From: Rhodoferax sp. OV413
Lineage (GTDB): Bacteria; Pseudomonadota; Gammaproteobacteria; Burkholderiales; Burkholderiaceae_C
Assembly: GCA_945861785.1 (NCBI GenBank)
Contig: CAMAWD010000032.1
Span: 1-58,164 of the forward strand
Direction of reading: 5' to 3'
Length of the DNA stretch: 58,164 bases
The notes under the pieces were generated by a model. That model saw only the letters and a list, made by a program, of their open reading frames with translations, had not been told where the DNA came from and did not search any database. Both the position numbers and the translations under genes were made by a program. This document shows positions 39,867 to 55,676 of this stretch, piece by piece; positions within the stretch are counted from its first letter, which is position 1, and each line of letters opens with the position of its first letter.

Positions 39867-40369
39867 GGATAGATGCTTTTCAAACGCCCTTTTCCTGCCC
39901 CACGGAACCCCGAATACGGCAGAGCAAGGGCGGCACACAGCGCCCGACGCGCTTGAATCTGTTTTTGGACGCAGCCGACCCCAGGTGCCCTGGTCGCCAG
40001 GCAATCTTGCGCTTGCGCACCACCTGGCTGGCGGCGTTGCACTGCACGCGATCGTTGGCCAGCGCCGGCCGGATGATGGTGCTACACAGTTGCTCCAGTG
40101 CCTGCTGGTCATCGGCCGCGCAGCGCACGGCTGCGTGCTACTCTGTTTCCATTGATGTCAGTGCACAGCGTCTGCTTGAACGCCGTCTGCCTGGGCATGG
40201 CGCCCTGCACCGTCAGCACCTTCTGACCGGCGCGCGGACCGAGCGCGATGCCGTAGGTACACGCTGCGGCCTGCTGCGGCCTGAGCGTGCGGGCCTCGTC
40301 CGAATCGCCGTCGTTGTCGGCTTCGTCAGCCTTGAGTGCGGACTGTTGATGCGTGATGCGCGTCGCAAT
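39867..40369 (-). mobile_element. IS91-family remnant, copy E (inverted)
   Basis: Read on the minus strand, it contains the mid-transposase segment lost from copy B (DEARTLRPQQAAACTYGIAL, then GQKVLTVQGAMPRQ). A frameshifted C-terminal part (ALEQLCSTIIRPALANDRVQ) follows. It then jumps across a deletion to the downstream region and the terminus GGGCGTTTGAAAAGC. Positions 39867-39975 are an approximately 110-bp inverted copy of 3313-3420. No functional transposase remains. Confidence 0.75.
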
Positions 40370-41348: not shown

Positions 41349-42329
41349 ATGGAACTAGGCATGATCGGTTTGGGCCGCATGGGCGGCAACATTGTCAGGC
41401 GGCTGATGCGCCATGGACACCCTTGTGTGGTGTACGACACCAACGCAGCTGCGGTGGTGCAGCTCGGGGGCGAGGGGGCAAGCACGGCGAAGGATATGGC
41501 CGACCTGGTTCGCAAGCTCAGCCGGCCGCGCGCGGTATGGGTGATGCTGCCGTCGGGCCCTGTCACCGAGGCCGCGGTAGTTGCGCTGGGTGAACTGCTT
41601 GAGCCCGGCGACTGCATCATCGACGGCGGCAACTCGAACTTCAAGGACGACGTGCGGCGCGCCCAGACGCTGGAGCCCAAATCTATCCACTATATTGACG
41701 TAGGAACCAGCGGCGGCGTCTGGGGACTCGAGCGGGGTTATTGCCTGATGATTGGAGGCGACAAGGCGTCGGTGGAGCGGCTCGATCCGATTTTCAAGAC
41801 GCTCGCTCCTGGCATCGGATCCATCGAAAAAACGCCTGCGCGCGGGGTTCGCAAGTCGACCGCCGAAGACGGCTACCTCTACACCGGTCCCGCCGGGTCG
41901 GGCCATTTCGTAAAGATGGTCCACAACGGAATCGAGTACGGCCTGATGCAGGCCTACGCTGAGGGGCTCGATATTCTCAAGGGCGTGGCCCAAGAAAGCG
42001 TTCCGGCCGAGCGGCGCTATAACCTGGACTTGGCCGAAATCACCGAACTGTGGCGTCGCGGCAGCGTGGTGTCTTCCTGGCTGCTGGACCTGAGCGCTAA
42101 CGCGCTGGCCGAAGACCCGCAACTGAGCGGATTTTCCGGCCATGTGGACGATTCAGGCGAGGGCCGCTGGACGATCCAGGCGGCCATCGAGGAGGCGGTT
42201 CCGGCCGACGTGCTGACGGCCGCCCTCTACACCCGGTTTCGCTCGCGCCAGGACCATACTTTTGCGGAAAAGCTGCTGTCGGCGATGCGCAAACAGTTCG
42301 GTGGCCACCAAGAACCCGCGAAAGGCTGA
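41349..42329 (+). CDS. gnd: 6-phosphogluconate dehydrogenase, short (GntZ/YqeC-like) form
   Basis: A 326-residue oxidative decarboxylase that converts 6-phosphogluconate to ribulose 5-phosphate. Rossmann motif [13 protein letters not shown] at the N-terminus, [28 protein letters not shown] and the catalytic [14 protein letters not shown] segment are all present. The short length points to the approximately 300-residue form found in many bacteria, which often prefers NAD. An AAGGAG ribosome binding site precedes ATG 41349. zwf follows after two bases. Confidence 0.9.
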
Positions 42330-42331
42330 AC

Positions 42332-43873
42332 ATGGCTACCGCCCACGAGATTGAGCACGAGGCTATACCGCACGGCCAGCAGGCACCATCGTGCACCATG
42401 GTGATCTTTGGCGCCGCCGGCGACCTGACCAAGCGCCTGCTGATACCGGCGCTCTACAACCTGGCGCGCACCGAGTTGCTGCCGGCGGACTTCGCGCTGA
42501 TAGGCGTTGACCGGCTGGAAATGTCCGACACCGCCTTCCGCCAGCACCTCGACAACGCGGTGCGTGCTTTTGCCTCGGACAAGCATTACTCGCAGGCGCT
42601 TGACGAGAGCCACTGGGCTGAACTGCTCAAGCGCATCAGCTATTTGCAGGGCGATTTTGGCGACGCGTTGGCGTATGGGCGGCTGCGCGAGAAACTCGCC
42701 GAGGTCCGCAAGGAGCAGGTCAGCAGCGACAATGTTGTTTTCTATCTGGCAGTCGGTGCGCGCTTCTTTGGCGGCATCGTCGACCATCTGGGCCAGGCCG
42801 GGCTCGTCACCGAGACCCAGGCCGGCTGGCGCAGGGTGGTGGTCGAAAAGCCCTTCGGCCATAGTGTCGATTCGGCGCGCGCCTTAAACGCGCAATTGCG
42901 CCGCAGCCTGGACGAGCGCCAGATCTACCGGATGGACCATTTCCTGGGCAAGGAGACGGTGCAGAACATCATGCTGATGCGTTTTGCCAATGCCATCTTC
43001 GAGCCGCTTTGGAACCGCGACCATATCGACCATATCCAGATCACCGTGGCTGAAACCGTGGGCGTGGAAAGCCGCGCCGGGTTTTACGAGGGCACCGGCG
43101 CCATGCGTGACATGGTCCCGAACCATGTGTTCCAACTGCTGGCCCTGACTGCGATGGAGCCGCCGACGTCCTTCGCCGCCGACGCTGTTCGCAGCGAAAA
43201 AACCAAGGTACTCAACGCGGTGCACCGGGTCAACGCGGCGAGCGACAGTGTTCGCGGCCAGTACACGGTCGGGCAGCGTGACGGAAAATTGCTGCGCGGC
43301 TACCGCGAGGAAGACGGCGTTGCGGCGACGAGCACGACCGAGACCTATGTCGCCATGAAACTCGGCGTCGACAACTGGCGCTGGTCAGGGGTTCCGTTCT
43401 ACCTGCGAACCGGCAAGGCGATGGCCAAGCGCAGTAGCGAGATCGTGATCCAGTTCAAACGTCCGCCGCTGTCGCTGTTTCGCGATACCGCCACCGAGGC
43501 GCTGACGCCCAACGCGCTGGTGCTCAAACTGCAGCCCGACGAGGGCGCCGCGCTGATGTTCGGTGCGAAAATTCCCGGGCCGACCATTTCGATCGGCCAG
43601 GTCCACATGGATTTCCATTACAAGGACTATTTTCAGAACGCACCGAGCACCGGCTACGAGACGCTGATTTACGACTGCATGATAGGAGACGCTACGCTGT
43701 TCCAGCGCGCTGACAATGTGATCGCGGGATGGCAGATCGTCCAGCCGATACTCGATTACTGGGCCAATGACCCCGCCGCACCACTGACGCAATACGCGGC
43801 CGGATCCGAAGGTTCGCCCGAGGCCAGCGTCCTGTTGCAGTCGGAGGGGCGCAGTTGGAAGTCATTGCTGTGA
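42332..43873 (+). CDS. zwf: glucose-6-phosphate 1-dehydrogenase
   Basis: A 513-residue enzyme of the oxidative pentose phosphate pathway. The coenzyme loop is IFGAAGDLTKRLLIPAL and the substrate motif RMDHFLGKETVQN contains the catalytic His. RTGKAM and VHMDFHY segments are also conserved. It starts two bases after gnd, giving a gnd-zwf operon. No phosphogluconolactonase gene is beside it. It ends directly before an IS91 remnant. Family length and motifs are complete, so it is likely active. Confidence 0.95.
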   Translation: MATAHEIEHEAIPHGQQAPSCTMVIFGAAGDLTKRLLIPALYNLARTELLPADFALIGVDRLEMSDTAFRQHLDNAVRAFASDKHYSQALDESHWAELLKRISYLQGDFGDALAYGRLREKLAEVRKEQVSSDNVVFYLAVGARFFGGIVDHLGQAGLVTETQAGWRRVVVEKPFGHSVDSARALNAQLRRSLDERQIYRMDHFLGKETVQNIMLMRFANAIFEPLWNRDHIDHIQITVAETVGVESRAGFYEGTGAMRDMVPNHVFQLLALTAMEPPTSFAADAVRSEKTKVLNAVHRVNAASDSVRGQYTVGQRDGKLLRGYREEDGVAATSTTETYVAMKLGVDNWRWSGVPFYLRTGKAMAKRSSEIVIQFKRPPLSLFRDTATEALTPNALVLKLQPDEGAALMFGAKIPGPTISIGQVHMDFHYKDYFQNAPSTGYETLIYDCMIGDATLFQRADNVIAGWQIVQPILDYWANDPAAPLTQYAAGSEGSPEASVLLQSEGRSWKSLL

Positions 43874-43889: not shown

Positions 43890-44290
43890 ATTGCTGGACG
43901 AAGAGCAGAGTTCGACCTACATGGCCGACAACGACGGCGATTCGGACGAGGCCCGCACGCTCAGGCCGCAGCAGGCCGCAGCGTGTACCTACGGCATCGC
44001 GCTCGGTCCGCGCGCCGGTCAGAAGGTGCTGACGGTGCAGGGCGCCATGCCCAGGCAGACGGAGTTCAAGCCAAGCTGCGCGCGCTGGTTGAGCCGCAGG
44101 AGCCCGAGACGCCCGCCCAATCTGTGGTGCCTGCCGAGTGCGAGGCGAACTGCGCGCACTGCCCCGGGCCGCCGGGGTCGGCTGCGTCCGATGGGTTGCG
44201 GGGCCGATGCAAGCGGCCCGAAGGCAAGGGATAACCCATAGACGGCGCCGGCGCCATGGGGAGGCGCATTTTTGCTGGGCCATCAACACC
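43890..44290 (+). mobile_element. IS91-family remnant, copy F
   Basis: It carries the transposase middle piece (MADNDGDSDEARTLRPQQAA, then VLTVQGAMPRQTEFK). It then jumps by deletion to AKLRALVEPQEPETPAQ and the downstream region (GAAGGCAAGGGATAACCC), which matches 3177-3290 of copy B. It is complementary to copies A and B in which parts are kept. It lies between zwf and the convergent dehydrogenase gene. Confidence 0.75.
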
Positions 44291-44312: not shown

Positions 44313-45254
44313 TCAAGCGACTCGGTGGCGCAGCGGTTGCCCGTCGATCAGGCTGCGGCAATTTTCAACGGCAAGATGCAACGCGCGATGAAACATGTCC
44401 TGCGTCAGCCAGGCCATGTGGGGCGTGGCGACGACATCGTCACGCTTCAGAAGCGGGTGGTCGGCGCAGACGGGCTCGTTTGTGAAGACATCCAGGCAGG
44501 CCACCGACACCCGTCCGAGGTCCAGCGCCTCGACCAGTGCATCTTCGTCCACCAACTCGCCGCGCGCCGTATTGATGAACACCGCCCCCCGTTTCATTTG
44601 AACAAACCGTTGCCTGCCGAACATGCCCCGGGTTTGCGCTGTGAGCGGCACATGCAGACTCACCATGTCGCTCTGGGCCAGCAGGTCTTCCAGCGACAGG
44701 CGCGGATAGTCGAACTGGTCGGCCTGGGACCGGCCGCAATACACCACGCGCATGCCCATCGCGGCCAGCCAGGGCGCTAGCATCCTGGGCACGTTGCCGG
44801 AGCCGACCAACCCCACCGTCTTGCCGTGCAACTCGAACAGCTTCTCTTGCAGCGGCTGCTCGATCGGCCATTGGCCCTGGCGCAGACCGGCACTGATACG
44901 CGTGAGCCGCCGCGCGGCTGCAAGCATCAGGCCCAGCGTCATCTCGGCCACGGCCCGGCTATTGACTCCCGGCATGTTGCACACCGCAATACCCCGCGCC
45001 CTGGCGGCGTCCAGATCGATGGTGTTGACGCCCACGCCGATTTTCTGGATCAAACGCAGCCGCGCACTGTGCTGCAGCATCGCGGCCGTGACGGGTTTGA
45101 GCACATGCCAGAGCACATCCGCGTCGGGCCAGTGCTGGTCAAACAGCGGCTGGTCGGTTTCGGGACAGCATACGATGTTCCATTGTGGCGGCGCATGTTG
45201 CTTCAGCCACTCCTGCAAGGAGGGGTTGACGTCGAAGTGGAACAGGACCTTCAT
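44313..45254 (-). CDS. 2-hydroxyacid dehydrogenase (hydroxypyruvate/glyoxylate reductase-like)
   Basis: A 313-residue NAD(P)-dependent D-2-hydroxyacid dehydrogenase. Conserved active-site residues are R231 (NTARGELVDE), E260 (DVFTNEP) and H279 (TPHMAW). The cofactor loop GLVGSGNVPRMLA lacks the third glycine of GxGxxG. The start at 45254 gives family-length protein. It is the last gene of a kinase-enolase-dehydrogenase operon (17 bases after enolase). It could reduce a 2-keto acid such as hydroxypyruvate to feed the kinase; the true substrate is unknown. Confidence 0.85.
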   Translation of the reverse strand: MKVLFHFDVNPSLQEWLKQHAPPQWNIVCCPETDQPLFDQHWPDADVLWHVLKPVTAAMLQHSARLRLIQKIGVGVNTIDLDAARARGIAVCNMPGVNSRAVAEMTLGLMLAAARRLTRISAGLRQGQWPIEQPLQEKLFELHGKTVGLVGSGNVPRMLAPWLAAMGMRVVYCGRSQADQFDYPRLSLEDLLAQSDMVSLHVPLTAQTRGMFGRQRFVQMKRGAVFINTARGELVDEDALVEALDLGRVSVACLDVFTNEPVCADHPLLKRDDVVATPHMAWLTQDMFHRALHLAVENCRSLIDGQPLRHRVA

Positions 45255-45271
45255 GGCGCCATTGTTCGTCT

Positions 45272-46555
45272 CTAGCGCTGCAGCCATGGGAAGATTCGCG
45301 GCGGCGGATAGGTGTTTGCCTGTGCCAATGACTGCTCGATGCGCAGCCCCTCGTTCCACTTGGCCATGCGCTCGGAGCGGGCGAAGCTGCCGACCTTGAG
45401 TTGCGCAACGCCCCAGCCCACGGCCAGATGCACGATGCTGACATCTTCCGTTTCCCCCGACCGCGCCGAGACGATACATCCCAGCTGGTGGCGGGTTGCA
45501 ACTTCAATGGCCTGGCGGGTCTCGGTCACGGTGCCGATCTGGTTGGGTTTGATCAGCACGGCATTGCATGCACCGAGCGCAGCCCGTTCGTCGATCCGGC
45601 GCGCGTTGGTGACAAAAAAATCGTCCCCGATGATCTGCAGCCGATGGCCCAGCCTTGCGGTCATTGCGCGCATGCCCTCGATGTCGTCCTCCGCAAAGCC
45701 GTCTTCCATCGAGATGATCGGGTAAGACTCGACCCACTGTGCATAGACATCCAGCAATTGTTCGCGCGTGAAAGACCGCGACTCGCTGCGCCAGTGGTAA
45801 CGGTCGTCGGCGAAGTACTGTGTGGACGCCAGATCCAGGGCTATGGAAACGTCTGCACCGGGGCGCAAGCCGGTGGCCTCAATGGCGCCTACCAGTGCTT
45901 CGATGGTGCCCTCGTTGGAGCCGAACTGCGGCCAGTAACCGCCTTCGTCGGCCACGCCCAGATTCTTCCCCTGGCTTGCCAAAGCCTTGCCAGCGGCGTA
46001 ATACACCTCGGCGACCCATTCGAGCGATTCGGCAAAACTGCCAGCCCCGTTCGGGATGGCCATGAAGTCCTGCACGTCGACGCTGCCGCGCGCATGGGCG
46101 CCACCGCCGAAGATCTGGATTTCCGGTAGCGGCAACCCCACCAGCCGGTCGCCGGCGAGGTACTGCCAAAGCGGCAGGCGCCGCTCGTTGCTCGCGGCCC
46201 ACAAGGCCGCCAGTGAGACGGCTGTCAGGCTGTTGCCACCCAGCCGGGACTTGTCTGGTGTTCCATCGGCGGCGATCATGGCTGCGTCGATTGCCGCCTG
46301 GTCGAAGATGTCCTGGCCCTGGAGCAACGGCCCAATTTCATCGTTGACGCGCTGCACCGCCTGGCGCACACCCCGGCCACGCAAGCGCGTGCCGCCATCG
46401 CGCAACTCGCGTGCTTCGCCAGCGCCGGTGGAAGCACCCGCCGGGGCGATGGCGCGGCCCACCACACCAGACTCCAGCGTCACCTCGGCCTCGACGGTCG
46501 GAAAACCGCGCGAGTCCCATACCGCCCTGCCTGTTACCTTCTGGATACGACTCAT
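45272..46555 (-). CDS. enolase-family enzyme with altered active site
   Basis: A 427-residue enolase homologue beginning MSRIQKVTGRAVWDSRG. Most catalytic machinery is kept: S42 loop, E204, metal ligands D241, E284 and the GDD at 311-312, general base K336 (LIKPNQIG) and K387. Two usual E. coli enolase residues differ. The Glu of NVDIQEFM is Asp (D163 in VQDFM), and the His of ISHRSGETED is Ala (A364 in VSARSGETED). It overlaps the upstream kinase gene by four bases. A substrate related to but distinct from 2-phosphoglycerate is plausible. Confidence 0.85.
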   Translation of the reverse strand: MSRIQKVTGRAVWDSRGFPTVEAEVTLESGVVGRAIAPAGASTGAGEARELRDGGTRLRGRGVRQAVQRVNDEIGPLLQGQDIFDQAAIDAAMIAADGTPDKSRLGGNSLTAVSLAALWAASNERRLPLWQYLAGDRLVGLPLPEIQIFGGGAHARGSVDVQDFMAIPNGAGSFAESLEWVAEVYYAAGKALASQGKNLGVADEGGYWPQFGSNEGTIEALVGAIEATGLRPGADVSIALDLASTQYFADDRYHWRSESRSFTREQLLDVYAQWVESYPIISMEDGFAEDDIEGMRAMTARLGHRLQIIGDDFFVTNARRIDERAALGACNAVLIKPNQIGTVTETRQAIEVATRHQLGCIVSARSGETEDVSIVHLAVGWGVAQLKVGSFARSERMAKWNEGLRIEQSLAQANTYPPPRIFPWLQR

Positions 46556-47556
46556 GGTTTGATTACTCTGTTGGCTGTCTGCATCACCGCGCCCAACCGG
46601 TCCGGCGATGCGCGCAGGCAACCCAGAGCGATCTGACGAACCGTTTCCTTGTCGGGCGCCCGGGTCAAGTATTCGACCGGCGACTTGCCATCCACGCGCG
46701 CCAGGAAAAGGGCCGGCAGCAAACGCGCCGCACGCGCCTCCAGCGACACGGCCGGTTCCCAATTGACCTGCGCAAGATAGGCTTGGTAGATCGTCTCGAA
46801 GGCGCAGAGAAATGCACCGGCCTGCGCCGGCCGGTGCACTGCCTTGAGCAGCATGTGGTTGAGGCAGAAAGCCAGATCGAAGGCAGGGTCGCCGTACCAG
46901 GCGCATTCGGCATCCAGGAACACCGGTGACGTCGGGCCGCACAGGATGTTCTTGGGGCTCACGTCACCGTGCACCAGTGCCAGCCGGGTGGTGGCCGTGG
47001 TGCGGCAGATGTCGCGCAACGTGTCGCCCAGCGCGGGATGCCGCTCGATGGTGGCCAGCAGGTAAGGCTCCAGCCGCAGAGAAAAGAACTCTGCGTCGCT
47101 CCTGAACCGCTCTGCAATGGCCGCGTTGTTGGCGGTGTGGGCATGGATGCGTCCGAGATGGTGCCCCACCTGGCGCGCCAGGTCCAGGTCGACGCGGCCC
47201 TGGAGCAACAGGGATTTCCATACCGGGTAACGCGCGGGCTCCAGAAACTCCATGAAGAAAATGCCGGCTTCTGCGTCGCGGCCGAGCATCCTGGGCGTCA
47301 TGCCCGGCAAGAACGGCGCCACGGTCTGGTACCAGGCGTATTCATAACTGTTGCGCGACAACGGCGCCTCCCATACGGCGGACACCTTGAGCCTGGACAA
47401 GGCGCGTTTGGCGCAGATGCTGTGGTCCGCCAAGTCGATGCGCCAGATATCCGACGACACGCCGCCGGTCAGCTGTGCAATGCCGCGAACGTCATGGTCC
47501 GATCCCAAGCCGAGTTTGTGCAGGGCGCCGGTGATCAAGCCGGTGGTGTCACTCAT
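46552..47556 (-). CDS. APH/choline-kinase-family phosphotransferase
   Basis: A 334-residue small-molecule kinase of the aminoglycoside phosphotransferase fold. The ATP-binding Lys is in ICAKRAL (K50), the catalytic loop is HGDVSPKN (196-203, D198) and the metal-binding Asp is in FLDAECAWYGDP (D215). The start at 47556 is chosen by family length. Substrates of this family include choline, homoserine, methylthioribose and antibiotics. Its translational coupling to the enolase-like gene points to a role in sugar-acid metabolism rather than resistance. This is inference from context. Confidence 0.8.
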   Translation of the reverse strand: MSDTTGLITGALHKLGLGSDHDVRGIAQLTGGVSSDIWRIDLADHSICAKRALSRLKVSAVWEAPLSRNSYEYAWYQTVAPFLPGMTPRMLGRDAEAGIFFMEFLEPARYPVWKSLLLQGRVDLDLARQVGHHLGRIHAHTANNAAIAERFRSDAEFFSLRLEPYLLATIERHPALGDTLRDICRTTATTRLALVHGDVSPKNILCGPTSPVFLDAECAWYGDPAFDLAFCLNHMLLKAVHRPAQAGAFLCAFETIYQAYLAQVNWEPAVSLEARAARLLPALFLARVDGKSPVEYLTRAPDKETVRQIALGCLRASPDRLGAVMQTANRVIKP

Positions 47557-47896: not shown

Positions 47897-48063
47897 AGCA
47901 TCGACCTGTTCCGCTCGCTGGTGGGTGTCAGCTCAGTAGTGGCTGCGCAGGCCTGCCTGAGACGGTCGAGATCTTCGGCGCGCGCGACAGCGCGGTGCTG
48001 CAGGACTTCGTCGCGGCCATCTTGCGGAAGTTCTGTCGGACGACGGGACGCGAGATCGGCGGT

Positions 48064-48215
48064 TTGCCCAGGCAGACGGAGTTCAAGCAGACCCTGTGCG
48101 CCGACACCAATGGAAACAAAGCAGCACGCAGCCGTGCGCTGCGCGGCCGACGACCGCGATGCGCTGAAGAAAGACGGGACCACGCACCTGGTGATGTCAC
48201 CGCTGGAGTGCGCAG
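48064..48215 (+). mobile_element. IS91-family remnant, copy G
   Basis: The plus strand reads PRQTEFKQTLCADTNG, then a deletion to HAAVRCAADDRDAL and KKDGTTHLVMSPLE, all pieces of the same IS91 transposase. The stretch 47897-48063 before it holds a protein-like frame (DSAVLQDFVAAILRKF) that I do not recognise. From 48216 to 48343 I see no gene. Confidence 0.7.
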
Positions 48216-48393: not shown

Positions 48394-49233
48394 ATGCAGC
48401 CGGCGAGCAAGGACACCGACACCGACACCACCGCCAAAGCCAGTGGCCGCAGCAAAGCCGCCACTGGCACCGTGGACCTGTCGCTGTTTCTCCTGGAGCA
48501 CCTGGTTGCCAGCCACAAGCCGGTCGGCATCAGCGATATGGCACGGGCCTTTCACTCCACCAAGCCCACGATCTACCGGCACATACAGGCGCTGGTCAAG
48601 CATGGATTCGCCCGCCAGGACAAGGAGACGAGCCGGTATGAAGCCGGCATCAAGCTGTTGGTGCTTGGCGAGTCGTTGCGCGAAAGGTTCAACATTGTGG
48701 CGCTGGCCCGCAGTGACATGCTTATGCTCCGCCAGGCGACGGGGCAGGCGGTCTCGCTGAGCACCTTGCGCACCGACGAAGTGATCACACTGGAACTCCT
48801 GCAAGGGCACACGGTGGTCGATTTCGGCATCAAGCCCGGCACCCGCATGGACCTGCACGCCACGGCGCACGGCAAGATAGCGCTGGCCTTCGGCTCCGCC
48901 GAACTGTTGGACGGCCTGACGCAGGCGACGCTGCGCTCCTGGACGCCAGACACGGTCACCAGCCTCTGCGCGCTCACAAAAACGGTGGCGCTGATCCGTC
49001 AACAAGGCTGGGCTACCGCTGCGAACGAGATCGTGCCCGGTGTCAATGCCCTGGCCGCCCCCATCTTCGACCATCGCGACGCCTACACCGGGGCGGTGGC
49101 CATCGTCGGCTCGACCCACATCATCGAAGCCACACCACGCGCGGACCTGATCGACCTGGTCACCAGTGCCGCGCAAAAAATCTCACGCGCGCTGGGAAGC
49201 ACTGGTTCCCGCACACAAGGAGAAAAAATTTGA
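48394..49233 (+). CDS. IclR-family transcriptional regulator
   Basis: A 279-residue regulator with an N-terminal helix-turn-helix (GISDMARAFHSTKPTIYRHI) and a C-terminal effector domain (LHATAHGKIALAFG and GVNALAAPIFDH). Its stop overlaps the TTG start of hyuA by four bases, so it is co-transcribed and translationally coupled with the enzymes it likely regulates. A palindrome lies immediately upstream. The inducer is presumably the hydantoinase substrate. Confidence 0.9.
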   Translation: MQPASKDTDTDTTAKASGRSKAATGTVDLSLFLLEHLVASHKPVGISDMARAFHSTKPTIYRHIQALVKHGFARQDKETSRYEAGIKLLVLGESLRERFNIVALARSDMLMLRQATGQAVSLSTLRTDEVITLELLQGHTVVDFGIKPGTRMDLHATAHGKIALAFGSAELLDGLTQATLRSWTPDTVTSLCALTKTVALIRQQGWATAANEIVPGVNALAAPIFDHRDAYTGAVAIVGSTHIIEATPRADLIDLVTSAAQKISRALGSTGSRTQGEKI

Positions 49234-51296
49234 CCTATTCACTGGCGGTGGACATCGGCGGTACGTTCACCGATATCGTCCTGCGCGGCTCTGGCGGCGA
49301 ACTGGTCATCGACAAGACATTGACGACACCCGACAACCTGCTGGAGGGGTTTTTTGCAGGTGTGAACGCCGTACTTGCCAAGGCACACCTGACACCTGGT
49401 GATATCGACGGCGTGGTGGTCCACGCAACCACGGTTGTCACCAATGCGCTGATCGAGCGCAAGGGACAAAAGACCGCCATGTTTGTCACCACCGGCTTCC
49501 GGGATGTGCTGTCGATACGCAACGAGCATCGCTACGACATGTTCGACCCCCAGATCGAATTCCAGCCCCCGCTGGTGCCCCGCGAACTCACCTACGGCAT
49601 TCGCGAGCGCATCCTGTCCGATGGAACCGTGCTTGAGGCGCCGTCCCGGCAGAACGTGCTGGAGGTGATCGCAGAATTGCGTCGCCAGGACGTCAAGGCG
49701 GTGGCGGTCTGTTTTCTGAACAGTTATGCGAATCCGGACAACGAATGCCTGGTCGGTGACATGCTGCGCGAGGAAATGCCTGAACTGTTCGTGTCGCTCT
49801 CGTCAGAAATCGCGCCCCAGATCCGCGAATATCCGCGCGCATCCACGACGGCGATCAACGCTTTTACGATGCCGATCTCGCAGCCTTACCTGAGTGCGCT
49901 GGCGGAAAGGCTCAAGCTGGAGAACTACGCGAACGAGCCCCTGATCATGTTGTCGTCGGGTGGCATCATCGGCACTGATGTCGCTGGTCGCAACCCGGTG
50001 CGCATGATCGAAAGCGGGCCGGCCGCCGGTGCCCTGGCTGCCAGCCACTATGCCAAGGTACTCGGCCTCGACCGCCTGATGTCGTTCGACATGGGCGGGA
50101 CGACCGCCAAAGCCTGCCTGATCGAGAATTTCGAGCCGCTGATCACGGGACTCTTCGAGGTGGACCGGCGTTACCGCTTCAAAGAGGGCAGCGGCATGCC
50201 AGTCACGATCCCGTCCATCGACATGATCGAGATCGGGGCTGGAGGTGGCAGCCTGGCTTACGTCGATGACCTGGGCTTGTTGAAGGTGGGGCCCAAGAGC
50301 GCGGGTGCGATGCCCGGCCCGGCATGTTATGGCCGCGGAGGTGAAGGTGCAGCGGTCACCGATGCCGACCTGCTGCTCGGCCTGCTCGACGCCGACAACT
50401 TTCTGGGTGGCGACATGCAACTCGATCGCACCGCCAGCGAACGGGCGATCACCGTCCTTGCGAAACGCCTGGGGACCACGACCAACACGGCCGCGCGCGG
50501 CATCTATCGGATCGTGGCGGAAGCCATGGCCGGCGCAACCCGGGCGCATGCCACGGACCGGGGCATCGACTACCGCGGCCTGTCCCTGCTGGCCTTCGGC
50601 GGCGCCGGCCCGGTGCACGCCTGCGAGGTGGGTGCGTTGCTGCAGAGCAAGTCCGTCATCTTCCCGCCGCAGGCCAGTGTGTTGTCCGCCTTCGGCACGC
50701 TGGTCACTCCGGTACGGCTCGATCTCGTGCGCAGCGCACTGGGCTTGCTCGAAACCAACGACTGGGCCCGGACCGATCGCCTGTTTGACGAAATGGGCCG
50801 GGAGGGACGCGACGCCCTGATATCGGCCGGCTGCAACCCGCAAGATATCACGCTGATTTTTGGCGCCGACATCCGGTACCTTGGACAGCAAAACGAAGTC
50901 AACGTGGCGCTGGAGACCGACCCGCGCACCAAGCACGACACAGCCGCCATCCAGGCGGCGTTCGATACGGTGTACCAAGCCCAGTACGGGTTCAAGCCTT
51001 CGCACGTTCCGACCGAGGTCGTCAGCTGGCGCCTGACCGCCCGCGGTCCCCTGGTGCCCTTCCATGCGGCGCTCGCACCACCATTGATTCAAGGACAACC
51101 CAAAACGTCCCGCAGGGTTCATCTGTGGCAGGACGACCAAATGGTGCCGGTCTATGACCGGACGTGTCTGGCCGTTCACCAGCGCATCGATGGCCCGGTG
51201 ATCATCGAGGAGCGTGAAACCACGATCATCGTCTTGCCCGGATGGGTGGCAACGGTAGATGAATTCGGCTGCATCGTAGCGACACAGAAGGAATGA
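49230..51296 (+). CDS. hyuA: hydantoinase/oxoprolinase subunit A (HyuA)
   Basis: A 688-residue subunit with the ATP-binding actin-like fold (DIGGTFTD at residues 8-15, FDMGGTTAKACL, GAGGGSLAYVD). A rare TTG start follows AAGGAG and overlaps the regulator stop. HyuAB enzymes hydrolyse hydantoins, N-methylhydantoins or 5-oxoproline with ATP; relatives carboxylate acetone or acetophenone. The exact reaction is not determinable from sequence. Coupling by overlap with hyuB indicates a heteromeric enzyme. Confidence 0.9.
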   Translation: MTYSLAVDIGGTFTDIVLRGSGGELVIDKTLTTPDNLLEGFFAGVNAVLAKAHLTPGDIDGVVVHATTVVTNALIERKGQKTAMFVTTGFRDVLSIRNEHRYDMFDPQIEFQPPLVPRELTYGIRERILSDGTVLEAPSRQNVLEVIAELRRQDVKAVAVCFLNSYANPDNECLVGDMLREEMPELFVSLSSEIAPQIREYPRASTTAINAFTMPISQPYLSALAERLKLENYANEPLIMLSSGGIIGTDVAGRNPVRMIESGPAAGALAASHYAKVLGLDRLMSFDMGGTTAKACLIENFEPLITGLFEVDRRYRFKEGSGMPVTIPSIDMIEIGAGGGSLAYVDDLGLLKVGPKSAGAMPGPACYGRGGEGAAVTDADLLLGLLDADNFLGGDMQLDRTASERAITVLAKRLGTTTNTAARGIYRIVAEAMAGATRAHATDRGIDYRGLSLLAFGGAGPVHACEVGALLQSKSVIFPPQASVLSAFGTLVTPVRLDLVRSALGLLETNDWARTDRLFDEMGREGRDALISAGCNPQDITLIFGADIRYLGQQNEVNVALETDPRTKHDTAAIQAAFDTVYQAQYGFKPSHVPTEVVSWRLTARGPLVPFHAALAPPLIQGQPKTSRRVHLWQDDQMVPVYDRTCLAVHQRIDGPVIIEERETTIIVLPGWVATVDEFGCIVATQKE

Positions 51297-52843
51297 CCAT
51301 GGACGGAATCGAACTCGAAATACTGTGGTCCAACCTGATCAGCATCGTCAGCGAACAGGCGAAAAGTCTGCAGCGCATCGCGTTCAGCCCGATCGTGCGC
51401 GAAGCCGGTGACCTGGCAAGTGCATTGTTTGACGCGCGCGGGCGCATGGTGGCCCAGGCCAACACGGGAACACCCGGCCATATCAATTCGCTCGCAGCTG
51501 CCGGCGGACACCTGCACCGGATGTTCGCAGGCACGCTCGAGGAGGGCGATGTCGTCATCACCAACGACCCCTGGTTGTCGGCAGGGCACTTCTTCGACAT
51601 CACGCTGCTGTCGCCCATCTTCAAGGACGGCCGCCTGATCGCCTACGTGGGCTCGACCATCCACCATACCGATATCGGTGGTTACGGCATCGGCGCCGGC
51701 GCCCGGGATATCCACGAGGAGGGTCTCTGGATTCCGCCGCTGAAACTCTTCGAGCGCGGGCAGCCCAACCAGACGCTGCACCACATCATCCGCAGCAACG
51801 TGCGCACGCCAGACCATGTGTTCGGCGACCTGGCGGCCCAGGTCTCCAGCGGCAAGTCCGGCGGGGAGCGCTTGGTGGCCATGTGCCGGCGCTACGGCCT
51901 GGCGGACATCGAGCAGCTGTCGGACGAGATCATCCGTCGCTCGGAAGAGTCGACGCGGGCCGAGATCCGCAAGCTCAAGCCGGGGACCTACCACGGCGTG
52001 AGCCAGTTCGACGTGCCTGGCGGCGAAATCATCACGCTGAAGGCTGCCGTGACCATTGACGCGGACAAAGGCGAGGTCACCATTGACTTTGAGGGAAGTT
52101 CCGGCGCCAGTGCGTCCGGCATCAACGTGGTGATGAACTACACACACGCCTACTCCACCTTTGCGATCCGCAGCTGCCTGAACCCGGATCTGCCCAACAA
52201 CCACGGCAGCCTCGCACCGATCCTCGTGAAGGCACCCAAGGGGTCCATCGTCAACTGTGAATACCCGGTTCCCGTCAACGCCAGGCACGTGGTGGGCATG
52301 TATGTGCCCATGCCGATTCTGAAGGCCCTGCACCAGGTCATTCCGGACCGCGTCCTGGCCGAAGGCGCAGGTGCCGTCTGGACGATCCAGATCCAGGGTC
52401 GACGCACCGATGGGGCAGCGTTCACGTCCTCGATGTTCAACTACTCGGGCGGCATGGGGGCGCGCAAGACCAAACCTGGTCCGTCCGCCACAGCCTACCC
52501 GACGGGTGTCGGCGCCGTGCCAATCGAAATCCTCGAGGCCGTGATCCCGATTGTTTTTGACCAGAAAGAACTGCGCATCGGCTCCGGCGGTGCCGGACGC
52601 CAGCGCGGCGGAGATGGCCAGACGATCCGGTTTCACATGCGCACGCCCTACCCCTGGCTGCTGAATGCGGTGCCAAGCAGGCTGCAACAAGGGCCCGACG
52701 GGCTCGATGGCGCGGGGCCGGGTGCAGCGGGCAGTTTCACGGTAGACGACAAACCATTCAAGGAGGCACGAAAGATCTCATTGCAGGCAAATGCGAAAGT
52801 TGTTCTGGAGACACCCGGTGGGGGTGGTTTCGGAAAAGCGTGA
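51293..52843 (+). CDS. hyuB: hydantoinase/oxoprolinase subunit B (HyuB)
   Basis: A 516-residue partner subunit. Typical segments are FSPIVREAGDLASALFDARG, NDPWLSAGHFFDITLLSPIF and GSGGAGRQRGGDG near the C-terminus. It starts in the ATGA overlap with hyuA. With HyuA it forms a cytoplasmic ATP-dependent amidohydrolase or carboxylase. The Liv transporter immediately downstream probably delivers its substrate. Confidence 0.9.
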   Translation: MTMDGIELEILWSNLISIVSEQAKSLQRIAFSPIVREAGDLASALFDARGRMVAQANTGTPGHINSLAAAGGHLHRMFAGTLEEGDVVITNDPWLSAGHFFDITLLSPIFKDGRLIAYVGSTIHHTDIGGYGIGAGARDIHEEGLWIPPLKLFERGQPNQTLHHIIRSNVRTPDHVFGDLAAQVSSGKSGGERLVAMCRRYGLADIEQLSDEIIRRSEESTRAEIRKLKPGTYHGVSQFDVPGGEIITLKAAVTIDADKGEVTIDFEGSSGASASGINVVMNYTHAYSTFAIRSCLNPDLPNNHGSLAPILVKAPKGSIVNCEYPVPVNARHVVGMYVPMPILKALHQVIPDRVLAEGAGAVWTIQIQGRRTDGAAFTSSMFNYSGGMGARKTKPGPSATAYPTGVGAVPIEILEAVIPIVFDQKELRIGSGGAGRQRGGDGQTIRFHMRTPYPWLLNAVPSRLQQGPDGLDGAGPGAAGSFTVDDKPFKEARKISLQANAKVVLETPGGGGFGKA

Positions 52844-52871
52844 CAGACACAGTAACACTAAGGAGACAACG

Positions 52872-54020
52872 ATGGAACACACACGACTAGCAACGAAACT
52901 CGGCGGCCTGGTGGCTGGCGCCGTGCTGATGGTGTCGGCGACAGCGGCACTGGCACAAACCTACAAGATCGGCATCTCTGCCGGCCTGACCGGTTATGCG
53001 GCCACGGTGGACCGGTCATGGAGCGATGGCGTCAAGCTCGCCGCCGACGCGATCAATGCCAAGGGGGGCATCAAGGGCCGAAAGATAGAGGTGATCGTCG
53101 AAGACAACCGATCGGAGCCGCAGGAGGCGGTGATCGTCTACCGCAAGATGATGACCAGCGACAAGGTGGACGTGTTCGCTTCCGGCTGTGTCTCGGCCGG
53201 GAACTTCGCCGCGGCTGCAGCCGTCGCCCGGGCCCAGATTCCCATGGTCCTGTGCTCCATCCTGCCGACCAAGGAGGATGAACTCAAATGGGCGTTCAGC
53301 ACGCTCCCGCCGGCACGCTTCGAGGTGGAGAGGCGCCTTGAATACATCCGCGACAACACGCAGATCCGCAAGATCGGCGTGCTCCATGACCCGTCGCCCT
53401 ATGCCAACCTGCAAAAGAACGTCGCCGAGAAATCCGCCGCCTCGTACGGTATCGAGGTGGTCGGGATCGAGCAGTACAAGACGGACGATCCGGACCTGTC
53501 CGTGCAGATCGGCAAGATGAACTCGGCCGGGGCCGGGGCCATCCTGAAGATCGGGCTGGGTGGCACCACACTGACGGCGGCCAAGAACATCAAGCAACTG
53601 GGCCTGCAGACGCTGATGCTCACCAGCCTGGAAGACCTGACCGTCTTCAAGCCGGTGGCGGAAGTACTGGGCGACAAGTTCCTGTTTGTCGCCGCACCGG
53701 CCCAGGTTGTCGACGCGCTTCCATCCGGCCCGCTCAAAAGGAGCATTTCCGACTTTCTGGCGCCCTGGAAGGCCAAGTACGGCGACCGGGACCCCAACTG
53801 GGCCGGCCGCGGCTGGGATGCGGTCTACCTGATCCAGGCCGCCATCCTGCGGGCGAATGCGTTTGAAGGCCCCAAGGTCCGCGATGCGATCGAGGGCATC
53901 ACGGGTTTCCAGGGTACGTCGGGTCTGTACGACTTCAGTCCCACTAACCACCAGGGGATCACCAACAACCCCCTCTTCCTGGCTACGATGTCCGGTACGC
54001 AGGTAAAAATCGTCAAGTGA
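52872..54020 (+). CDS. branched-chain-type ABC substrate-binding protein
   Basis: A 382-residue periplasmic binding protein with a clear signal peptide (LGGLVAGAVLMVSATAALA, cut before QTYKI). The mature start ISAGLTGYAATVDRSW, GGIKGRKIEVI and the later KTDDPDLSVQIGKM segment mark the HAAT/Liv family. AAGGAGAC precedes the ATG at 52872. The ligand is likely a cyclic ureide or N-heterocyclic compound, inferred from hyuAB. Confidence 0.9.
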   Translation: MEHTRLATKLGGLVAGAVLMVSATAALAQTYKIGISAGLTGYAATVDRSWSDGVKLAADAINAKGGIKGRKIEVIVEDNRSEPQEAVIVYRKMMTSDKVDVFASGCVSAGNFAAAAAVARAQIPMVLCSILPTKEDELKWAFSTLPPARFEVERRLEYIRDNTQIRKIGVLHDPSPYANLQKNVAEKSAASYGIEVVGIEQYKTDDPDLSVQIGKMNSAGAGAILKIGLGGTTLTAAKNIKQLGLQTLMLTSLEDLTVFKPVAEVLGDKFLFVAAPAQVVDALPSGPLKRSISDFLAPWKAKYGDRDPNWAGRGWDAVYLIQAAILRANAFEGPKVRDAIEGITGFQGTSGLYDFSPTNHQGITNNPLFLATMSGTQVKIVK

Positions 54021-54742
54021 ACATGCAGCCGCAGCTGACCCTTCAGGCAAGCGGGTTGACGGCGCGCTACGGCCCGGTCGAGGCCTTGCACCCGACCGAC
54101 CTGCATGTGAACGAGGGAGAACTGGTCGCAGTGCTCGGTCCGAATGGGGCTGGCAAGTCGACCTTGCTGCGGCGCATCGTGGGGCTGGTGCAAGGCGCAG
54201 GAACCGTCCGCTTCGCAGGCTCCCCGCTGCCGGCGTCGGACCCGCGCGGCTGCACCATGCGCGGCGTGGTGCTCGTGCCAGAAGGTCGCGGCATCTTCGG
54301 CCCGATGACCGTATTCGAGAACCTCGACCTGGGCTCCTACCTGGAGACCGACAAGGGCCAGATCAAGGCACGCATGGAGCGGGTGTTCGATTTGTTTCCC
54401 CGCCTGAAGGACCGTCAGAAGCAGTTGGGCGGCTCCCTGTCCGGTGGCGAGCAACAGATGCTGGCGATCGGCCGCGGCCTGATGGCGGCACCCAAGTTGC
54501 TCCTGCTGGACGAGCCGTCGCTGGGTTTGGCGCCACGGCTGGCAGAGGAAATTTTTGTCACGCTGGGTGCGCTCAACAAATCCGGCCTGAGCGTGTTGTT
54601 GGTGGAGCAGAAAGCGCCATTGGCACTCCAATTGGCGAAACGCGCCTACCTTCTCGCGGTAGGGCGGGTGGTCAGTGAAGTGACCCCCGACCAGATTCGT
54701 TCTCCGCATGATCTTGCCAGGTACTATCTTGCGACACACTGA
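54017..54742 (+). CDS. livF: branched-chain-type ABC ATPase (LivF)
   Basis: A 241-residue ATPase with Walker A GPNGAGKST, LVPEGRGIFG, signature LSGGEQQML and Walker B LLLLDEPSLGLAP. It begins at GTG 54017 in the overlap with the binding-protein gene; ATG 54023 is a possible alternative. It is one of the two nucleotide-binding subunits of this second Liv transporter. Confidence 0.9.
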   Translation: MNMQPQLTLQASGLTARYGPVEALHPTDLHVNEGELVAVLGPNGAGKSTLLRRIVGLVQGAGTVRFAGSPLPASDPRGCTMRGVVLVPEGRGIFGPMTVFENLDLGSYLETDKGQIKARMERVFDLFPRLKDRQKQLGGSLSGGEQQMLAIGRGLMAAPKLLLLDEPSLGLAPRLAEEIFVTLGALNKSGLSVLLVEQKAPLALQLAKRAYLLAVGRVVSEVTPDQIRSPHDLARYYLATH

Positions 54743-55676
54743 CTCCCACAGCCTGATTCGCTACGCGCTGATCGGCCTTGCTCTGGCCCTGTTCGGCTAC
54801 GCATTCGTCGCCGGCGGCTACCTGATCACGGTGCTGGGCTTCGCCGCCATCTACGCCATCTTCGTGACCGGGCTCAATTTCTTCATGGGGTATGCCGGCC
54901 AGGTGTCTTTTGGGCAAAACGCATTTGCTGCCCTGAGCGGGTACACCTCGGCAGTCCTCACCTCGACCTACGGTTGGCAGCCCATCGCGGCATTGCCGCT
55001 GGGAGTCGGCGGGGCCGTACTGGTTGCTTTGCTGGTCGGGTATCCGGCGCTGCGCCTGCGTGGCCACTATCTGGCAATGGCGACCCTGGCTCTGGGCATG
55101 ATCGTGTATGAGATTGCCGTCGAGTGGCAATCGATCACACAGGGTTACATGGGCATCTCGGGTATTCCCCCACTGGGTATCGGCGCGTGGGTGCTGGATG
55201 ACCCGCGCCATCAATTGCTGTTCCTGGTCGTGGTGCTGTGCGTTGCATTGCTGGCCGCCTACCGGTTGAAGGAATCGCGCTTCGGCATGGCTTTGACGGC
55301 CATAGCAGGCAGCGAGGATGCAGCCAAGGCCTTGGGCATCGACGTGTCGCACTACAAGCTCGCCGCCTTCCTGATCGCGGCGGTGTACGCAGCGGTCGCG
55401 GGGTCCTTGCTGGTCCACTTTGTCGGTTTTGTCAGCCCCGAGGTGTTCGGCCTGCACATGGTGATCGCCGGCTTCATGATGCTCTATGTGGGTGGTATCG
55501 GCTCCATCGCGGGGCCGGTGTTTGGCGCACTCATCATCAGCCTGCTGCCCGAGACCTTTCGTGCCTTCAAGGACTACCAGGACCTTGCGTATGGTGCCGC
55601 CCTGATCGTCATCCTGATTTTTGCACCCAAAGGGGCGGCCTCGTTGGCCCGCCTGCTCCCGAAAGGCGGCAAATGA
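54708..55676 (+). CDS. livM: branched-chain-type ABC permease (LivM)
   Basis: A 322-residue permease that overlaps the LivF gene by 35 bases if the first ATG is used. Hydrophobic segments, GYAGQVSFGQNAFAALSGY and the coupling loop AGSEDAAKALGID are typical of LivM. Its stop overlaps the LivG start by four bases. Confidence 0.9.
   Translation: MILPGTILRHTDSHSLIRYALIGLALALFGYAFVAGGYLITVLGFAAIYAIFVTGLNFFMGYAGQVSFGQNAFAALSGYTSAVLTSTYGWQPIAALPLGVGGAVLVALLVGYPALRLRGHYLAMATLALGMIVYEIAVEWQSITQGYMGISGIPPLGIGAWVLDDPRHQLLFLVVVLCVALLAAYRLKESRFGMALTAIAGSEDAAKALGIDVSHYKLAAFLIAAVYAAVAGSLLVHFVGFVSPEVFGLHMVIAGFMMLYVGGIGSIAGPVFGALIISLLPETFRAFKDYQDLAYGAALIVILIFAPKGAASLARLLPKGGK

What the first reader, a model, noticed from the sequence alone, without database searches (positions are those of the whole stretch)
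44313..47556. Kinase + enolase-like + 2-hydroxyacid dehydrogenase operon: a possible new phospho-acid pathway
The enolase-like protein keeps the general-base Lys (K336), metal ligands and Ser42 loop, but has Ala in place of the conserved substrate-binding His (A364) and Asp in place of a conserved Glu (D163). It is translationally coupled (four-base overlap) to an APH-fold kinase and followed by a D-2-hydroxyacid dehydrogenase. One testable model is: 2-keto acid reduced, hydroxyl phosphorylated, then dehydrated to an enol-phosphate. Hydroxypyruvate to glycerate to 2-phosphoglycerate to PEP would be the simplest version, but the altered site hints at another substrate.
Basis: partly seen in the sequence, partly recalled or inferred. 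Interest (0 to 1): 0.75.

Follow-up and report, generated by a model that had tools for sequence, protein, structure and literature searches.

The report
Kinase paired with altered enolase
Some bacteria carry a second, altered copy of the sugar-breakdown enzyme enolase that in the genomes examined travels with one particular kinase, which points to a catabolic step in which a sugar-type acid is first phosphorylated and then dehydrated; what it acts on is not known.

Summary
Window 44313-47556 (- strand) holds an APH-fold kinase overlapping by ATGA an enolase paralogue with Ala364 and Asp163, followed 17 bases on by a D-2-hydroxyacid dehydrogenase. I ran the suggested checks. The paralogues form one group apart from canonical enolases (support 100), seen in four phyla (two of them by one MAG each). 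Asp163 accompanies Ala364 in all 119 variant rows, Glu accompanies His in all 30 canonical rows. The kinase is near in 100 of 104 loci; the other four start at a contig end. In samples of 274 and 398 genomes, kinase and variant enolase occur in the same genomes, on the same contig, above the cut-offs used. All 16 carrier genomes examined also hold a canonical enolase and 14 of 16 a glycerate-kinase family member, so plain glycerate to PEP is unlikely to be the job. Neighbours are often sugar-acid catabolic. I read the pair as phosphorylating O2 of an (R)-2,3-dihydroxy acid unlike glycerate at C3, then dehydrating it to an enol phosphate. The substrate is unproven. Seven paper searches aimed at the pair found none describing it. 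New variant of a known kind.

The parts
46552..47556 (-). APH-fold small-molecule kinase, 334 aa (P0002), predicted 2-hydroxyacid O2-kinase
   Evidence: Pfam APH 51.2 bits, the only family at 0.001; HGDVSPKN and DAE motifs; AlphaFold model pLDDT 94.8; 15 of the 16 top Foldseek chains are methylthioribose kinase, TMq 0.71-0.85
45272..46555 (-). Variant enolase, 427 aa (P0001), Ala364/Asp163 subfamily
   Evidence: Enolase_N and Enolase_C, TIGR01060 476 bits against cut-off 300; 47% identical to the same genome's canonical enolase; AlphaFold pLDDT 90.9, TM 0.95 to M. tuberculosis enolase
46552..46555 (-). ATGA overlap of kinase stop and enolase start
   Evidence: Sequence; the same -4 gap in 19 of 70 adjacent kinase-enolase pairs
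46067..46069 (-). Codon of Asp163 (Glu in canonical enolases)
45464..45466 (-). Codon of Ala364 (His in canonical enolases)
44313..45254 (-). D-2-hydroxyacid dehydrogenase, 313 aa (P0003), predicted to make the (R)-2-hydroxy acid
   Evidence: Pfam 2-Hacid_dh_C 191 bits; best solved relative glycerate dehydrogenase/glyoxylate reductase 2cuk, 186 bits; catalytic Arg/Glu/His present

Best explanation
The genes encode a two-step phosphorylative dehydration module. Where present, the D-2-hydroxyacid dehydrogenase supplies an (R)-2-hydroxy acid; elsewhere the acid arrives ready-made. The APH-fold kinase puts phosphate on O2. The variant enolase holds that phosphate and the carboxylate as ordinary enolase does, takes the C2 proton with Lys336, and with Glu204/Asp163 expels the oxygen at C3 to give an enol phosphate. 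His-to-Ala and Glu-to-Asp make room around C3, so the substrate is not 2-phosphoglycerate but a 2,3-dihydroxy acid with an extra group at C3 (aldonate-like, C4 or larger). Shown: gene order, clade, pairing, intact catalytic residues. Inferred: phosphorylation site, stereochemistry, room at C3, substrate, product.
For: Kinase and enolase occur together in 100 of 104 loci and in 4 of 4 and 9 of 9 kinase-bearing genomes of two samples, own genome in both. Ala364 and Asp163 go together in every row of the group, with base, metal ligands, phosphate Arg and second Lys kept. The carriers examined hold a canonical enolase (16 of 16) and mostly a glycerate-kinase family member (14 of 16). In M. tuberculosis enolase Glu163 and Glu204 are described as acting at the terminal carbon through a water (PMC10619443, passages). 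Sugar-acid context in part of the loci: FAA hydrolase in 44 of 104; an SDR resembling L-2-keto-3-deoxyfuconate 4-dehydrogenase; XylB-type sugar dehydrogenases; a sugar ABC binding protein; kinase fold nearest methylthioribose kinase, whose substrate is a pentose derivative. D-2-hydroxyacid dehydrogenases make the R configuration that 2-phospho-D-glycerate has (established knowledge).
Against: I saw no enzyme conserved with the pair that would consume a C4+ enol phosphate. In Rhizobium N324 PEP carboxylase lies head to tail with dehydrogenase and kinase, and a PEP carboxylase match lies beyond LacI in Pararhizobium, which suggests PEP itself as product. One locus (L095) has a galactonate-dehydratase-like gene nearby, so an ordinary dehydratase can coexist. 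48 of 104 loci show neither FAA hydrolase nor the dehydrogenase within 10 kb of the stretch held. The own genome has no close match to the comamonad FAA hydrolase (best 44%). TIGR01060, the canonical equivalog, passes its cut-off. No pocket geometry was computed, and no activity is known.
Confidence: 0.48

Rival explanations
1. Plain glycerate salvage: hydroxypyruvate to D-glycerate (dehydrogenase), to 2-phosphoglycerate (kinase), to PEP (enolase), as a dedicated copy of housekeeping chemistry.
For: The best solved relative of the dehydrogenase is a glycerate/glyoxylate enzyme. PEP carboxylase is head to tail with dehydrogenase and kinase in Rhizobium N324. An FAA hydrolase acting on a 2,4-diketo-3-deoxyhexonate would release glycerate (inference). 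TIGR01060 passes its cut-off. No further conserved enzyme is needed.
Against: Canonical enolase in 16 of 16 and a glycerate-kinase family member in 14 of 16 carrier genomes make it redundant. Two active-site positions that are invariant in the 30 canonical rows are changed in every variant row.
Confidence: 0.2
2. Same product (PEP), different leaving group: the kinase phosphorylates a 3-O-substituted or otherwise 3-substituted lactate (for example a 3-O-alkyl or 3-O-glycosyl glycerate) and the altered site expels that group.
For: Two of the changes lie (by recall) around the C3 leaving group while Glu204 is kept. Explains PEP carboxylase beside the kinase and why canonical enolase could not substitute. 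Two glutathione-dependent formaldehyde genes lie in the Rhizobium N324 stretch.
Against: Among the recurrent neighbour clusters that I scanned, no demethylase, glycosidase or sulfite gene appeared. The formaldehyde genes are about 7-14 kb away in one record.
Confidence: 0.12
3. L-glycerate assimilation: the kinase makes 2-phospho-L-glycerate and the enolase works on the mirror-image C2 with Glu204 as base and Lys336 as acid.
For: FAA hydrolase acting on an L-hexose-derived diketo acid would give L-glycerate (inference). Lys336 and Glu204 are both kept.
Against: The linked dehydrogenases are of the D-specific family. The phosphate- and carboxylate-binding residues are unchanged, which favours the ordinary C2 configuration.
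Confidence: 0.07
4. The enolase is not an enzyme of this pathway but a regulatory or structural protein that travels with the kinase.
For: Enolases are known to moonlight (recalled). One degenerate homologue (L113) without the catalytic residues exists elsewhere.
Against: Base, metal ligands, phosphate Arg and second Lys are kept across the group.
Confidence: 0.04

Closest known systems
Canonical enolase (phosphopyruvate hydratase, EC 4.2.1.11; TIGR01060)
   Same: Fold (TM 0.95), length, metal-site carboxylates, Lys336/Lys387, Glu204, Arg365-Ser366, Ser42 loop
   Different: His to Ala364, Glu to Asp163, plus 12 further diagnostic positions; accessory and patchy, paired with a kinase, present besides a canonical copy in the 16 carriers examined
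Methylthioribose kinase and other APH-fold small-molecule kinases
   Same: APH fold and catalytic motifs; nearest solved fold
   Different: 13-17% identity to the methylthioribose kinase chains; TIGR01767 52.9 bits against cut-off 275; a conserved 'RVDGKSPVEYL'-like stretch; linked to an enolase
Glycerate 2-kinase plus enolase route (GlxK/GarK or MOFRL kinases, then enolase)
   Same: Same chemistry in outline: phosphorylate O2 of a 2,3-dihydroxy acid, then dehydrate to an enol phosphate
   Different: Kinase from another family; enolase with altered C3 site; most carriers examined own the ordinary families too
Non-phosphorylating L-fucose/L-rhamnose pathway (2-keto-3-deoxyaldonate 4-dehydrogenase plus 2,4-diketo-3-deoxyaldonate hydrolase; PMC11199699, passages)
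   Same: Roseobacter-type loci pair the kinase and enolase with an FAA hydrolase and related SDRs
   Different: No aldonate dehydratase is listed in the annotated stretches L084 and L085 (that gene table is incomplete by design); kinase and variant enolase are there instead
Carboxyphosphonoenolpyruvate synthase of phosphinothricin biosynthesis (recalled)
   Same: Recalled as a secondary-pathway enolase homologue
   Different: Not compared here

Membership tests
Canonical enolase (EC 4.2.1.11) | Enolase_N and Enolase_C domains, equivalog score above cut-off | tested here: met
   156 and 277 bits; TIGR01060 476.2 against 300
Canonical enolase (EC 4.2.1.11) | Metal ligands, base Lys, second Lys, Ser loop, phosphate Arg-Ser, Glu204 acid | tested here: met
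Canonical enolase (EC 4.2.1.11) | His at 364 and Glu at 163, as in all canonical rows here | tested here: not met
   Asp163 in 119 of 119 Ala364 rows; Glu in 30 of 30 His rows
Canonical enolase (EC 4.2.1.11) | Groups with canonical enolases in a tree | tested here: not met
   separate group, SH-aLRT 100 (L111 left out); root not determined
Canonical enolase (EC 4.2.1.11) | 2-phosphoglycerate dehydratase activity | not testable with these tools
   Needs an assay
APH-fold kinases | APH domain with HGDxxxxN and a D-x-D/E metal site | tested here: met
Methylthioribose kinase | TIGR01767 above cut-off | tested here: not met
   52.9 against 275 bits
Glycerate 2-kinase (MOFRL or Gly_kinase type) | PF05161 or PF02595 domain | tested here: not met
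   only APH matches P0002 at E 0.001; no match at this locus
D-2-hydroxyacid dehydrogenase | NAD-binding and catalytic domains with Arg, Glu, His | tested here: met
D-2-hydroxyacid dehydrogenase | Substrate specificity (hydroxypyruvate, 2-ketoaldonate or other) | tested here: inconclusive
   21 NCBIfam models matched, none above its cut-off
Carboxyphosphonoenolpyruvate synthase | Sequence grouping with that enzyme | not tested
   No reference sequence was fetched

The most novel reading that the evidence does not exclude
A phosphorylative dehydration route for sugar acids: an aldonate is phosphorylated on O2 by an APH-fold kinase and dehydrated by a re-specialised enolase to a substituted PEP (2-phosphoenol-3-deoxyaldonate), standing in for the usual aldonate dehydratases and giving enolase proper, not only the wider enolase superfamily, a second metabolic substrate.
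Probability: 0.3. Interest if true: 0.85.

Novelty: new variant of a known kind. Interest (0 to 1): 0.6.

Why it matters
Enolase proper is generally treated as a conserved single-substrate enzyme (established view, recalled). A separate, kinase-linked group with a changed C3 site, labelled 'phosphopyruvate hydratase' in the annotated plasmid records seen, would mean misannotation across several phyla and an undescribed catabolic step. The kinase offers a direct way to make the enolase's substrate in vitro, so the question can be tested with two purified proteins.

Tried and rejected
Plain PEP formation from glycerate was downgraded after finding canonical enolase in 16 of 16 and a glycerate-kinase family member in 14 of 16 carriers; the two without are G976 and G984. 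'Kinase and enolase simply replace the aldonate dehydratase' looked compelling from the Roseibium and Paracoccus loci, but L095 carries a galactonate-dehydratase-like gene, so I keep it only as the most novel reading. Sulfolactate with sulfite as leaving group was considered and dropped: no sulfite-handling gene appeared among the clusters scanned, and acidic residues stay at the leaving-group site. A role for the HpaD-like VOC protein, CMD protein and Zn-ADH found in Rhizobium, Streptomyces, Variovorax and Paraburkholderia could not be worked out. Transporter relatives gave mixed hints: TRAP DctP, sugar ABC binding protein. Clustering artefact: 'cluster 1' merged other proteins, mainly a cupin, with the kinase; I then used direct P0002 hits. 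Paper searches: all ten were used; seven were aimed at the pair and none listed a paper describing it. Four of these returned nothing, one search listed 9, one (not opened) and 20 of 69 (titles and abstract starts only). The one listed paper that speaks of 'enolase paralogs' (PMC6946804, passages) concerns mandelate-racemase-type members of the superfamily. The library lacks most subscription journals, so absence is weak evidence.
Full report
What is there. On the - strand of the window a kinase (47556-46552), an enolase paralogue (46555-45272) and a D-2-hydroxyacid dehydrogenase (45254-44313) follow one another. Kinase and enolase share ATGA; the next gap is 17 bases. The enolase scores 476 bits against the TIGR01060 cut-off of 300, and in Pfam the kinase matches only the APH family. 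The own genome also has a canonical enolase, 47% identical to the paralogue.

Active site. Aligned with the canonical copy, the paralogue keeps Ser42, His154, Glu204, Asp241, Glu284, Asp311, Lys336, Arg365, Ser366 and Lys387 but has Ala364 for His and Asp163 for Glu. In the first set of related loci 81 of 81 show both changes. In 149 rows, each row has either Ala (119) or His (30) at 364, and 163 is Asp in all 119 and Glu in all 30. The groups were sorted by residue 364; 14 of the 119 rows are second fetches of loci already counted, one is the window protein besides its own locus, and one degenerate homologue, L113, was left out. Fourteen positions separate the two groups at 93% or more on both sides. 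From recall, yeast His373 with Glu168 and Glu211 surrounds the water or hydroxyl at C3; in M. tuberculosis enolase Glu163 and Glu204 are described as acting at the terminal carbon of PEP through a water (PMC10619443, passages). So these two changes lie at C3, not at the phosphate or carboxylate sites. Some of the other twelve (for example Ala to Trp208) could refill the space; no coordinates were available to measure it. The AlphaFold models are confident (pLDDT 90.9 for the enolase, 94.8 for the kinase) and show only that the folds are enolase and methylthioribose-kinase-like.

One group. A tree of 147 rows (132 different; L111 and the duplicate L002 left out), with canonical enolases of 15 carrier genomes from other lineages included, puts all variants on one side of a branch with SH-aLRT 100. 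An earlier tree of 119 rows gave 95, with the long-branched variant L111 next to the canonical side, so its place is unsure. The root was not determined. Organism labels span Pseudomonadota, Actinomycetota (Streptomyces), and one metagenome-assembled contig each of Planctomycetota (L012) and Acidobacteriota (L040). The group is patchy: 7 of the 40 genomes (own included; residues checked), and 3 of 299 genomes of one order at E 1e-140.

Kinase linkage. Of 104 variant loci, 99 contain a P0002-like kinase in the stretch held: 70 directly upstream on the same strand (gap -60 to 400; exactly -4 in 19) and 29 between 0.4 and 10 kb away on either side or strand. The short L111 stretch lacked it, but the longer L150 from the same contig has it (53%), making 100 of 104. 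The remaining four (L047, L068, L074, L077) begin at a contig end 0-3.5 kb upstream of the enolase. A few loci are near-copies (L060 and L098 are identical in the enolase). By whole genomes, the kinase at E 1e-40 or better is in 4 of 274 and 9 of 398 sampled genomes, own genome included in both; each also has the variant enolase on the same contig. Ala364/Asp163 was checked in all of these. The other strong enolase hits in those samples (3 and 2 genomes) proved canonical. Caveat: the enolase cut-offs (1e-124, 1e-122) would miss members as divergent as L111, so 'variant without kinase' is excluded only above that score. None of 30 canonical enolase loci has the kinase in its short flank of 0.3-1.5 kb.

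Redundancy argument. Fifteen carrier genomes from other lineages and the own genome all hold a canonical enolase (16 of 16, residues). Glycerate-kinase families are present in 14 of the 16: MOFRL in 11 and Gly_kinase in three others; the functions of these members were not tested. A second glycerate-to-PEP route would add little in most carriers.

Neighbourhood. Within 10 kb and within the stretch held, 46 of 104 loci have a D-2-hydroxyacid dehydrogenase, 44 an FAA hydrolase, 34 both and 48 neither (some stretches are short). Two main dehydrogenase types occur: the P0003 type at 46-64% identity, and others at about 31-34%, mostly CtBP-like. In the 16 FAA hydrolases compared, those of comamonad, rhizobial, Streptomyces, Variovorax and Paraburkholderia loci are 49% or more identical to one another, while those of the Roseibium/Paracoccus type form another set. 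In Roseibium and Paracoccus plasmids the order is LacI, kinase, enolase, FAA hydrolase, SDRs, sugar ABC transporter; L099 shows LacI, kinase, enolase, FAA hydrolase, SDR. One of the Roseibium SDRs is closest to human DHRS6 and to L-2-keto-3-deoxyfuconate 4-dehydrogenase (identity of 8XWK checked in PMC11199699, passages). Another SDR resembles XylB sugar dehydrogenase (278-332 bits in three loci, cut-off 400). The Roseibium binding protein's best matches are called sugar ABC binding proteins (305 bits), with a glucose-binding protein at 81 bits. No aldonate dehydratase is listed in those two stretches (the gene table is incomplete by design), but L095 has a galactonate-dehydratase-like gene. 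Several comamonad relatives add GFO/IDH/MocA genes, a TRAP transporter and DUF6807. Rhizobium, Paraburkholderia, Variovorax and Streptomyces loci add an HpaD-like VOC protein, a CMD protein and a Zn-alcohol dehydrogenase. In Rhizobium N324 PEP carboxylase, dehydrogenase and kinase are head to tail; a PEP carboxylase match is also nearby in Pararhizobium A13, beyond LacI. The own locus has no FAA hydrolase beside it, and the genome's best match is 44%.

Interpretation. Tight pairing says the kinase makes what the enolase uses. Retained base, metals and phosphate site say the chemistry is abstraction of the C2 proton from a 2-phospho acid. The C3-side changes and the redundancy argument say the acid is not glycerate. 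The context, in part of the loci, says sugar acid. The D-2-hydroxyacid dehydrogenase, where present, would provide the R configuration. What happens to the enol phosphate is open: if it is a C4+ compound, something must remove the phosphate, and I saw no such gene conserved; if a different group leaves C3, the product is PEP, which the rhizobial PEP carboxylase would favour.

Novelty. Seven searches of a 5.39-million-paper open library were aimed at the pair and listed no paper describing it; most listed papers were seen only as titles and abstract starts. Among solved structures the best match scores 402 bits, about what the own canonical enolase scores (397), whereas clade members score 440 or more with exceptions (G023 358, G002 321, G616 413); structure sequences were not checked residue by residue. 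I rate it a new variant of a known kind.

Noticed in passing
window 40174-40321 and 43924-44071; 40090-40204 and 48058-48172: Inverted repeats of 148 nt (99% complementary, 3.6 kb apart) and 115 nt (84%), around the gnd-like/zwf pair and the kinase-enolase operon; possibly remnants of a mobile or repeated element.
   Followed up: no
window 41349-43873 (+): A short-form 6-phosphogluconate dehydrogenase (NF007161, 475 bits) followed by glucose-6-phosphate dehydrogenase (zwf, 599 bits), convergent with the operon.
   Followed up: no
window 48394-55673 (+): IclR regulator, hydantoinase/oxoprolinase A and B subunits and a branched-chain-type ABC transporter, divergent from the kinase; the A subunit is nearest to caprolactamase CapA (482 bits, cut-off 1000).
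   Followed up: no
L083 19641-24462 (-), Rhizobium sp. N324 plasmid: PEP carboxylase, a C-terminal-binding-protein-like dehydrogenase and the kinase lie head to tail; a PEP carboxylase match is also nearby in Pararhizobium L088, beyond LacI.
   Followed up: partly
L039, L052, L065, L083 and relatives: A recurring set near the pair: HpaD-like VOC protein, CMD protein and Zn-alcohol dehydrogenase, in part of them also a cupin and an FMN-reductase-type protein; substrate unknown.
   Followed up: partly
L113 (G033 contig C42): A 29-32% identical enolase homologue lacking most canonical catalytic residues at the aligned sites.
   Followed up: no
L095 13187-18190 (-): Sugar porter, an SDR match, a galactonate-dehydratase-like MR_MLE protein and an MFS transporter upstream of the kinase-enolase-FAAH-SDR genes, with LacI between.
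   Followed up: partly
P0003 residues 148-156 (window 44313-45254): The NAD-binding motif reads GLVGSGNVP, with Pro at the usual third Gly; several linked dehydrogenases of the same type share the Pro.
   Followed up: no
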